64,000 nucleotides of DNA, from positions 47,358,192-47,422,191 of the forward strand of contig OY754464.1 of the NCBI GenBank assembly GCA_963575645.1, read 5' to 3'. Both the position numbers and the translations under genes were made by a program. A model generated the notes under the pieces. It made no database searches. It saw only the letters and a list, made by a program, of their open reading frames with translations, and was not told where the DNA came from. The DNA is from Xanthostigma xanthostigma (taxonomy: Eukaryota; Arthropoda; Insecta; Raphidioptera; Raphidiidae). Below are positions 55,701 through 59,291 of the stretch, piece after piece (the first letter of the stretch is position 1; the number at the start of each line of letters is the position of its first letter).

Positions 55701-58700
55701 GTCAAATGTTTAAGTATTAATTTCTTAAATATTAAAAAATAAAGCTGCGATCTACAGAATATACTATTTCCATAAGAAATAATAATTTACCAAGTCATAT
55801 ATAACATTTTTTTATTACAACAAAATACGGACGCAGTCTTTACTAATACGGTCGAGGGTGTATAACCTTAAGTTCCTTGGTGACATCCCAATGTTGCCGA
55901 CCAAAAAAAAAAAAAAAAACTGGTGACTTGGATTATTTTGTAATGATTTTACTAAAAATTCAAAAAGCCTGTACAACTCATAGCAGCACATTAATGGTAT
56001 AATTAGCAGTACTGCTAAAGTCATTAAACGAAAGAGTTGGTTGAACCGTTAAAGTTATTTAAAAAAACGAGCAGGGCCGACAACACTATTGAGTCGAAAA
56101 AATTATGAAACAAAAGAGCTTTAAAATTTGCAGAACATCGTCATGGTTGGCAACACTGTAAAGTTCTTAAAACTATTAAATGAAAGAACTTTAAAAATTG
56201 CGTGTGGTGGTTTCATACTACGCATGAAATAGTTTTACTGCATGTTCTTTTCTTTTTTGCATGTATTCTAGAAAGTGGAAAAGGCGTGCGAGGAAGAAAT
56301 GAATAAATACTTAAAGAAGTATTCGTTGACGCGCGCTTATCACAACTCGTCAACAGACACTGCTATATTTGATATCAACATGGACGGATTCGCTTCACTC
56401 AGATCTCGCAGCGATTATCAAAACTCAATAGCTTCCGATACACTGTCCACTAATTCTTCCCTCGGAAAATCGTCACTTAGCGATTTTTCATTTTTCAACA
56501 GACGGTACAAATATGTCAGACCCAAATCTCATTTGTTTTCCTTGCCCCATGTTCCTAGTCTAGAACATAGCACGTCAACGATCGGTTCAAAAACAAAATC
56601 GATATCGTCTTCGACTTTATCATTAAACAGTACAATAGATCGCGAAAGCGAAATGAACGAAATCACGAGAAGACCAAATAAAAAAATCGAATACAGACCT
56701 CAGTCGATGTATAGCGGTTCTTTCAGTTTGGAATCTGCATCGCGTAACGATACTGTCATTAAGATCGTTAAACAAAGAAGTGTCGACTGTCCGGATGATT
56801 CTGCCGCTTAATTGTCTATAATAGATGTCTTTGGTATGTTAGTGTAGATTAGATAACGTGAAATTTGCACTGAAAAGCGTGCGTTAGGTTTACTGAAAGT
56901 GTACACTGTCGGTACACTTGTAGCAGACGAGCTAGTGATTCTAAACATGTTCTGAGTAGATTGTACATGCGCATTACAAATTAGATAAATGACGTACGTG
57001 ACAGATTTCACAAGGTCAGTGTATCTTACACTATTGTATAGCAAACGCAATAGTGCCAAAAGTGTTCACATTTTTACCCTGAAAGACGATACCAAACACA
57101 CCTATTATCATTTCGCTTTGTATGCTTGCCTTCTATCTATAGTTAATGATGCTTTCAATACATTTTGTAGTTTGCTGCATGGTATATAATTATTATGCTT
57201 AGAGATTATGAATTATGTGTACTGAATTTTGTGTCCTATGTATTTATTCCATCTCCCGATCCAACATAGTTTTATAATGTAAACGAGTACATTCCGTCCA
57301 TGTGTTTTCCGCTTTTTATACATATTATGTATTATGCCTTCTATATAACTTCTTAGTTAATATTCAGTAATTACAATGAAGTACTATAATTTTGTTTTAT
57401 TCTTCTTTTCATTTTTGCGTACATTTACAGTTAATAAATGCGTTCAGATTATTTTTACACTACATTTGTTACCCTATTTTGTGAGATCAAAACCAACGTT
57501 TATCAGTTACATGGTTTAGTGTTTCAGTGACGCATTTGTTTAGGTGATTTAGCGCCATCTAATGATAAACTTTTCAACGCAATAATCCATTTTGTAACGT
57601 AGTTTTCCATTTCCATTTCTGTTTGTAGAACGTTATCGCTGACATGTTTGTCATTTGTTTAAAGCTTATTTAAATCTTTGGTCCAAATGTTTTTTTTTTT
57701 TTTTTTGTTTTGTGGAAAAATTTTAAGAGGTTATAACGCGTTTGGATGCATAAAATGCAATGTTATGATAGATTAATTATAATATATGCTTATATGTCAC
57801 TTGAATCAATGGAAACCAGTAAAAGTGCATAATATCGGTTACATTGCAATATTCATTTTATAATCTTGTTAATTTAGATATTGTGGATTAGACATATTTA
57901 TTTATTTTGTATTTATAAAAAGAGTAATGTATTTTGTTACATTGCGTTAACATAAACTCCATACTTATTTAATAATTGTGATTAAGGTGCCAAAAACTTT
58001 CTTTTTTTTTAATTAAAAAAAAAAAACAAACAAATAATAAACTCCAATTTTTTATTGGGAGAAATTAGATAAATTAAATATAACTTCATTTATTTTTCAT
58101 AAGCCAGGGTAGTGTATTGTTTAAATTTTGACAGGATTTATTTCGTTGAATGTACTGTAGAACAAATGAAATACGCTAATAAAAAAGTGTATTTTGAATT
58201 ATACACCAGTGCGTTTGCTTTGTAAAATTCTCTTTCTCCATTTTTTCCCTTGTCCTCAATAACCCTAACCTAGCTCATGATATTTTACTAACATTGCATC
58301 AGCTTCAAAAACATGAAAGGTTAGTTATGTAAAATATTTTTTAATCTGTATCTAATTAAAACTCAACAAAATTTCACCACATCTATCGATTTTAATTTGG
58401 AAACAAAGTTGGATAAAATAAAGAAGCCACGTTCCGAATATTTTTTAAATGACCTTCAAAGCAGGCGAGATTTTAGAATTGTCTAAATGTGACGAAAAGG
58501 TTAGACCTTTAAATTGCTGTAATGAGGTCCGAACTTTTCAGCATGTTGCTGCTGAATCCTGACCAATTTTTTGGCGAGTACAATTTTTTTTATTTTTTTA
58601 CAGTTGTAAAACACTGACCCACCAGATATTTGCTTATGTACCCTGCTGGTTCGGTCAATGCCTAGTTCGGATCAGTCTTCATGGTCGAAAATTCCTTGTT

Positions 58701-59291: not shown

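What the first reader, a model, noticed from the sequence alone, without database searches (positions are those of the whole stretch)
56272..59291. Two alternative last exons give Slik different C-terminal tails
Exon 7 ends in phase 0. Both 56272-56811 and 59130-59291 start in phase 0 after good acceptors and run to a stop. Both begin with a similar block ([13 protein letters not shown] and [13 protein letters not shown]), suggesting an ancient duplication of the terminal exon. The upstream exon then adds about 165 Ser-rich residues and has its own poly(A) motifs. The downstream tail is the one conserved across SLK kinases. A switch here would change the end of the coiled coil that SLK kinases use for dimerisation and cortical targeting.
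Basis: partly seen in the sequence, partly recalled or inferred. Interest (0 to 1): 0.72.

Follow-up and report, generated by a model that had tools for sequence, protein, structure and literature searches.

The report
Alternative end for insect Slik kinase
An insect gene for the cell-shape kinase Slik appears to carry two competing final exons, so that the same kinase could be made with a short acidic end or a long serine-rich end; this looks real in the DNA but needs RNA data to prove it.

Summary
After exon 7 (donor 53424/53425, phase 0), 56272-56811 (8a, 179 aa) and 59130-59291 (8b, 53 aa) each follow a good acceptor and run to a stop. 8a is more than chance: 0 of 500 shuffled introns give a 179-codon frame, 0 of 15,540 intronic windows score as well on codon use, and 0 of 3,000 composition-matched shuffles are stop-free. 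One copy was found in the 623 Mb genome. The gene is the SLK/STK10/Slik orthologue. Best reading: 8a is a proximal alternative last exon competing with 8b. Expression and conservation could not be tested.

The coiled-coil change is small (about 15 helical residues after a proline); the larger change is charge, +5 with 48 Ser/Thr against -5.

New: two UGCAUG (Rbfox) sites start 33 and 14 nt upstream of 8a; no other of 46 strong-like acceptors in the gene has one within 60 nt. This suggests an Rbfox-gated choice, as in calcitonin/CGRP. A MITE-like repeat begins 9 nt after the 8a stop.

The parts
25627..26034 (+). frame holding the first kinase exon of the Slik/SLK orthologue (N-lobe, [15 protein letters not shown]); donor-like GT at 26035; exact exon start not determined
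   Evidence: motif scan, Pkinase E 5.8e-13, donor match 7 of 9
36315..36543 (+). frame holding the kinase exon with HRDLKAGN; donor-like GT at 36544; exact exon start not determined
   Evidence: frame 36315-36548 best PDB matches are SLK (4.5e-21) and STK10 (1.6e-20); donor match 6 of 9
38116..38646 (+). frame holding the kinase C-lobe exon (DFGVSAKN...WMAPEV); donor-like GT at 38647; exact exon start not determined
   Evidence: Pkinase E 2.8e-25; donor match 7 of 9
49323..51923 (+). exon 6 frame: Ser-rich centre and PKK coiled coil (exact exon start not determined)
   Evidence: PF12474 PKK E 3e-57; donor AAG|GTATGT
53185..53424 (+). exon 7: last shared exon, end of the PKK coiled coil, ends phase 0 at ..LKPRKQ
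   Evidence: PKK E 1.6e-9; splice sites and translation
53425..53430 (+). shared 5' splice site GTACTT (7 of 9 to CAGGTAAGT with the exon end)
56239..56263 (+). two UGCAUG (Rbfox) motifs, 56239-56244 and 56258-56263, starting 33 and 14 nt upstream of exon 8a; a third GCAUG at 56222
56272..56811 (+). exon 8a coding part: proximal alternative last exon, 179 aa Ser-rich tail, stop TAA 56809-56811
   Evidence: single copy found
56812..57438 (+). presumed 8a 3' UTR to the first AATAAA (57433-57438); end inferred
56821..57105 (+). MITE-like dispersed repeat with 17-nt terminal inverted repeats (15 of 17 matching) and probable TA flanks, 9 nt after the 8a stop; carries a donor-like AAG|GTCAGT at 57015
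   Evidence: 39 other matches among 40 scored; 12 copies aligned; ends and donor
59130..59291 (+). exon 8b coding part: distal last exon, 53 aa tail, stop TAG 59289-59291

Best explanation
The gene is the insect Slik/SLK/STK10 orthologue and 8a is a proximal, polyadenylated alternative last exon that competes with the distal exon 8b for the single donor of exon 7. Splicing to 8b would give the usual short acidic end. Splicing to 8a, followed by cleavage downstream (first AATAAA at 57433), would give a 179-residue, mostly disordered, Ser/Thr-rich, net basic end directly behind the membrane-binding coiled coil. I infer that the choice is set at the 8a acceptor, probably by an Rbfox protein bound to the two UGCAUG sites in its branch-point/pyrimidine region: Rbfox bound upstream would block 8a and give 8b in Rbfox-expressing tissue such as muscle or nerve. 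I infer that tail A acts as a second phospho-adjustable charge patch tuning membrane attachment. Shown: gene identity, exon anatomy, coding statistics, motif positions, charge and composition. Inferred: use in RNA, Rbfox control, effect on the protein.
For: Phase and splice anatomy. ORF and codon statistics against several nulls. No donor-like site inside the 8a frame (best 5 of 9 among 26 GTs). One copy of the exon found in the genome, so not itself a repeat. AATAAA rarer than in shuffles in the intron before 8a (2 against 7.8) and commoner after it (7 against 3.4). UGCAUG pair: 8a is the only one of 46 strong-like acceptors in 25760-60500 with any UGCAUG within 60 nt, and it has two; 0 of 1,000 intron shuffles and 1 of 5,000 local shuffles put two there. 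Rbfox binds UGCAUG in flies and vertebrates, with an effect that depends on upstream or downstream binding (PMC8742874, passages). Slik's coil binds and bends membrane, and phosphorylation of 17 Ser/Thr in its central region switches membrane attachment by charge (PMC12000455, passages). Tail A: +5, 48 S/T of 179; tail B: -5, 13 S/T of 53.
Against: No RNA evidence, and no relatives with which to test conservation (searches found none, in collections where none is expected). In the GC-matched null the codon score is only moderately significant (33 of 3,000), and frames from 2 of the 8 training loci (237 of 3,383 training codons) are probably not the kinase frame. An antisense frame of the same stretch scores nearly as well (0.122 against 0.140), though it has 6 stops. 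The UGCAUG motif was noticed after looking, so its odds are post hoc; the 64 kb window as a whole is not enriched (32 against 26.9 expected). AATAAA is scarce after 8b too (1 against 4.3), so its count is a poor guide, and the first one after 8a lies about 620 nt past the stop. Rbfox repression and the charge role of tail A are untested.
Confidence: 0.7

Rival explanations
1. 8a is a fossil or silent pseudo-exon: once a coding terminal exon, still open by chance or recent loss, now not spliced.
For: No transcript data; codon signal modest in the GC-matched null (33 of 3,000); an old MITE-like repeat starts 9 nt past the stop.
Against: 179 intact codons, 0 of 3,000 matched shuffles stop-free, codon score above all 15,540 intronic windows; acceptor intact and coincident with the frame.
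Confidence: 0.13
2. 8a belongs to another transcript: a nested gene on the same strand starting inside intron 7 (first ATG at codon 10 of the frame), or a terminal exon joined to an unrecognised exon.
For: The frame has an internal ATG at codon 10; the intron has not been surveyed by RNA.
Against: The frame begins exactly at a strong acceptor in phase with exon 7; the longest other + strand frames in the flanking introns are 67 and 66 codons; no Pfam match in 8a.
Confidence: 0.07
3. 8a is a poison exon: spliced in as 56272-57014 using the donor-like AAG|GTCAGT inside the repeat and on to 8b, which puts the 8a stop about 200 nt before a junction and sends the mRNA to decay, so that the choice sets Slik dose.
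For: Donor match 7 of 9 at 57015, as good as the gene's own donors.
Against: The donor lies in a dispersed repeat, so it is a late and perhaps incidental site; a poison exon needs no 179-codon coding-like frame.
Confidence: 0.05
4. The two terminal exons arose by tandem duplication and are versions of one block.
For: Aligned block scores 14 by BLOSUM62 (permutation p 0.007, or 0.023 with the first Lys fixed); 20 of 39 nt identical, reached by 9 of 2,578 exon-6 39-mers.
Against: Only 2 of 13 residues identical; 4 of 419 and 7 of 419 coil segments of the same protein do as well. Both must continue the same coil, which can explain the resemblance.
Confidence: 0.08

Closest known systems
Drosophila Slik / vertebrate SLK and STK10 (LOK), GCK-V Ste20 kinases
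   Same: Kinase exon best matches SLK/STK10 in the PDB; PKK coiled coil; Ser-rich centre; 8b resembles the short end that I recall for the family.
   Different: A second, 179-residue Ser-rich terminal exon. In the Slik papers searched by term no alternative C-terminal tail showed up in the passages; two primary Slik papers were not held, and insect gene annotation could not be consulted.
Calcitonin/CGRP (CALCA) alternative terminal exon, coding-region alternative polyadenylation
   Same: Proximal terminal exon with its own stop and poly(A) region competing with distal exon(s). A review gives CALCA as an example and lists Fox-1/Fox-2 with UGCAUG among splice factors affecting polyadenylation, effect 'Unknown' (PMC3647115, passages). 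Recalled, not read: Fox proteins repress CALCA exon 4 through a UGCAUG about 34 nt upstream; here the sites begin 33 and 14 nt upstream.
   Different: Different gene and phylum; Fox control not tested.
ELAV-regulated alternative last exons of insect neurons
   Same: Proximal against distal last exon; papers seen only in a search listing with abstract starts.
   Different: No ELAV site was tested; U-rich runs are common in this AT-rich intron.

Membership tests
SLK/STK10/Slik kinase family | Ste20-type kinase domain closest to SLK/STK10 | tested here: met
   The first 8 of 60 listed PDB rows (247 matched) are SLK and STK10, E 4.5e-21 to 1.7e-20; the next, TAO2, is 5.6e-13; one exon tested
SLK/STK10/Slik kinase family | C-terminal PKK coiled coil (PF12474) | tested here: met
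   E 3e-57 in exon 6, 1.6e-9 in exon 7; the 3 PKK matches found in the genome lie in this gene
SLK/STK10/Slik kinase family | Conserved short tail after the coil (8b) | not testable with these tools
   No full-length relatives held; similarity to vertebrate tails is recalled only
Alternative last exon (coding-region alternative polyadenylation) | Two terminal exons with acceptors and stops in phase with one donor | tested here: met
   caveat: donor-like site after the 8a stop at 57015
Alternative last exon (coding-region alternative polyadenylation) | Poly(A) signal after the proximal exon | tested here: inconclusive
   7 AATAAA in 56812-59129, 23 of 500 shuffles reach that; first about 620 nt past the stop; only 1 after 8b against 4.3 expected
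Alternative last exon (coding-region alternative polyadenylation) | Both isoforms found in RNA | not testable with these tools
   No transcript data held
Fox-regulated terminal exon (CALCA type) | UGCAUG close upstream of the proximal terminal exon | tested here: met
   56239 and 56258
Fox-regulated terminal exon (CALCA type) | Exon use changes with Fox level | not testable with these tools
   needs RNA or minigene; an Rbfox gene probably exists

The most novel reading that the evidence does not exclude
In this insect lineage Slik has an Rbfox-gated tail switch: in tissues with Rbfox the proximal exon is silenced and Slik ends short and acidic; elsewhere it gains a 179-residue basic, 48-Ser/Thr tail directly on its membrane-bending coiled coil, a second phospho-charge switch that changes how strongly the kinase holds to and shapes the cortex.
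Probability: 0.2. Interest if true: 0.62.

Novelty: new member of a known kind. Interest (0 to 1): 0.42.

Why it matters
Slik is reported to be a kinase whose coiled coil bends membranes and drives cytonemes, with membrane attachment set by phospho-charge (PMC12000455, passages). A natural isoform that places a long phospho-adjustable tail behind that coil would let the cell set this activity by splicing, and gives a testable link from Rbfox to cortical mechanics. If 8a proves silent, it is an instructive false exon.

Tried and rejected
Duplication of the terminal exon: tested by permutation and against coil 13-mers of the same protein; not supported. 8a as a repeat or paralogue fragment: rejected, since one copy of the protein and of the exon DNA was found (the search scores only its best candidates). 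The raised GC after the 8a stop as coding-like or transcript evidence: rejected, because it is a MITE-like repeat. I considered that the stop came from the repeat, because TTAA overlaps the stop and some matches begin at 56812-56820; the inverted ends lie at 56821 and 57105, so the stop is outside it. 8a as an internal coding cassette: no donor above 5 of 9 inside the frame; my first donor pattern was too narrow and missed the site at 57015. Known domains or folds in tail A: none in Pfam or the PDB; single-sequence fold mean pLDDT 40.7, too poor for a fold search, so none was made. Relatives: none in viral contigs or prokaryote genomes; these collections hold no insects by design, so this says nothing about conservation. 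RNA families: none at the gathering cut-offs in 52000-64000, none up to E 1 in 56700-57250. The Fox-1_C Pfam search found nothing in this genome or in the prokaryote controls and is uninformative. Bacterial promoter scan is irrelevant to an insect. First codon training used some wrong frames; repeated, where L002 (53 codons) and L008 (184 codons) still gave frames that are probably not the kinase frame. Short linear motifs in the tails were scanned; none was convincing.

Full report
Check. The window lies in contig C1 of a 623 Mb, 28-contig genome. Exon 7 (53185-53424) ends in phase 0 at a GTACTT donor; 56272-56811 and 59130-59291 both start in phase 0 after pyrimidine-rich acceptors and end in a stop. 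In 8a the acceptor's TAG is the in-frame stop, so the open frame starts at the splice site to the base.

Chance. I compared 8a with several nulls. Dinucleotide shuffles of the flanking intron sequence (5,165 nt) never reach 179 codons (0 of 500; largest 149); shuffles of the GC-richer kilobase around 8a do so in 1 of 2,000. A codon log-odds score trained on 3,383 codons beats all 15,540 intronic windows of the same length. Against 3,000 shuffles of the exon itself, which share its GC, 33 reach the score and none is stop-free. The GC-matched codon test is thus moderate and the open frame is the strong part. Frames from two of the eight training loci (237 codons) are probably wrong. In the first scoring one antisense frame, with 6 stops, came close (0.122 against 0.140 bits per codon). 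8b, short, scores high (0.55 against 0.14 for 8a and 0.22 for the kinase exon that was kept out of training).

Gene. The kinase exon at 36315-36548 matches SLK (4.5e-21) and STK10 (1.6e-20) best among solved structures, with TAO2 next at 5.6e-13. Exons 6 and 7 carry PKK. The 3 PKK matches found in the genome lie in this gene, so this is the one SLK-family gene found.

Tail A. One copy was found in the genome. It has no Pfam or PDB match. A single-sequence fold gives a helix at residues 2-16, short strands and a short helix up to residue 42 and no element after that, all at low confidence (mean pLDDT 40.7). It has 48 Ser/Thr in 179 residues and net charge +5; tail B has net -5. A proline four residues before the junction suggests that the long coil is already interrupted there, so the isoforms would differ more in charge and phosphorylation sites than in coiled coil.

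Duplication. The block likeness is 2 of 13 identities. By permutation it is p 0.007 (0.023 with the first Lys fixed), and 20 of 39 nucleotides agree, which 9 of 2,578 exon-6 39-mers equal. But 4 of 419 (for 8b) and 7 of 419 (for 8a) segments of the gene's own coil are as similar. A shared coiled-coil context can explain it.

Ends. The region between the 8a stop and 8b has 7 AATAAA (shuffle mean 3.4, reached by 23 of 500), while the intron before 8a has only 2 (shuffle mean 7.8; 499 of 500 shuffles have at least 2). This is a mild sign that 8a is followed by a real 3' end; but the 2.3 kb after 8b, where a 3' end is expected, has only 1 (mean 4.3), so the motif count is a weak guide. The first AATAAA after 8a is at 57433. 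From 56821 to 57105 lies a MITE-like repeat with 17-nt inverted ends (15 of 17 matching) and probable TA flanks, 70-80% identical to the 12 copies aligned; 39 matches besides the window's own were listed among 40 scored candidates of 429. Inside the 8a frame the best of 26 GTs matches 5 of 9 donor positions, but the repeat brings a 7-of-9 site at 57015; a poison-exon use of 8a is therefore a live, though less likely, rival.

Regulation. Two UGCAUG hexamers start 33 and 14 nt upstream of 8a. Among 46 strong-like acceptors in 25760-60500, 8a is the only one with any UGCAUG within 60 nt, and it has two. 0 of 1,000 intron shuffles and 1 of 5,000 local shuffles give two. The window as a whole is not enriched (32 on both strands against 26.9 expected), and I noticed the motif after the fact. 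Two exon-sized Rbfox-like matches (88 and 92%) lie 20 kb apart in this genome. Fly Rbfox1 binds UGCAUG, and Rbfox effects depend on upstream or downstream binding (PMC8742874, passages). CALCA is given as an example of coding-region poly(A) choice, and Fox-1/2 with UGCAUG is listed there with effect 'Unknown' (PMC3647115, passages). That Fox represses the proximal CALCA exon from about 34 nt upstream is recalled, not read.

Mechanism. The Slik coiled coil dimerises, binds phosphoinositide and tubulates membrane, and phosphorylation of 17 Ser/Thr in the central region switches membrane attachment by charge, the unphosphorylated form binding (PMC12000455, passages, citing De Jamblinne 2020, which was not held). 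A basic tail with 48 Ser/Thr right behind that coil would be well placed as a second such switch. This step is inference.

What is missing. No RNA and no insect relatives could be searched; the viral and prokaryote scans say nothing on conservation. Papers: ten searches. In the three Slik papers queried by term (PMC12000455; PMC4111555; PMC10552427) the only Slik isoform named in the passages shown is PA; no alternative tail was seen. The founding Slik paper was not held. I therefore cannot say whether the tail is already annotated in insect databases.

Noticed in passing
52583-53014: Foldback element in the intron between exons 6 and 7: 155-nt arms 98% complementary plus 26-nt arms 100% complementary; 39 other places at 96-98% identity among the 40 scored (1,294 first-look candidates), which suggests a recently active family; its end lies about 170 nt upstream of the exon 7 acceptor.
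   Followed up: partly
56821-57105: MITE-like repeat with 17-nt terminal inverted repeats and probable TA flanks 9 nt after the 8a stop, carrying a donor-like site at 57015; 12 copies aligned at about 70-80% identity to the window copy.
   Followed up: partly
47704-48186: 160-codon open frame upstream of exon 6; no Pfam match over its cut-off. By eye it recalls a decayed retroelement reverse-transcriptase end; not tested.
   Followed up: no
42533-42730 (+) and 32194-32379 (-): The frames [17 protein letters not shown] and [17 protein letters not shown] recur in opposite orientation (listing), probably a dispersed repeat in the gene's introns.
   Followed up: no
48952-49170: A 72-codon + strand frame (..[42 protein letters not shown]..) that by eye looks like another Slik exon just before exon 6; its splice sites were not worked out.
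   Followed up: no
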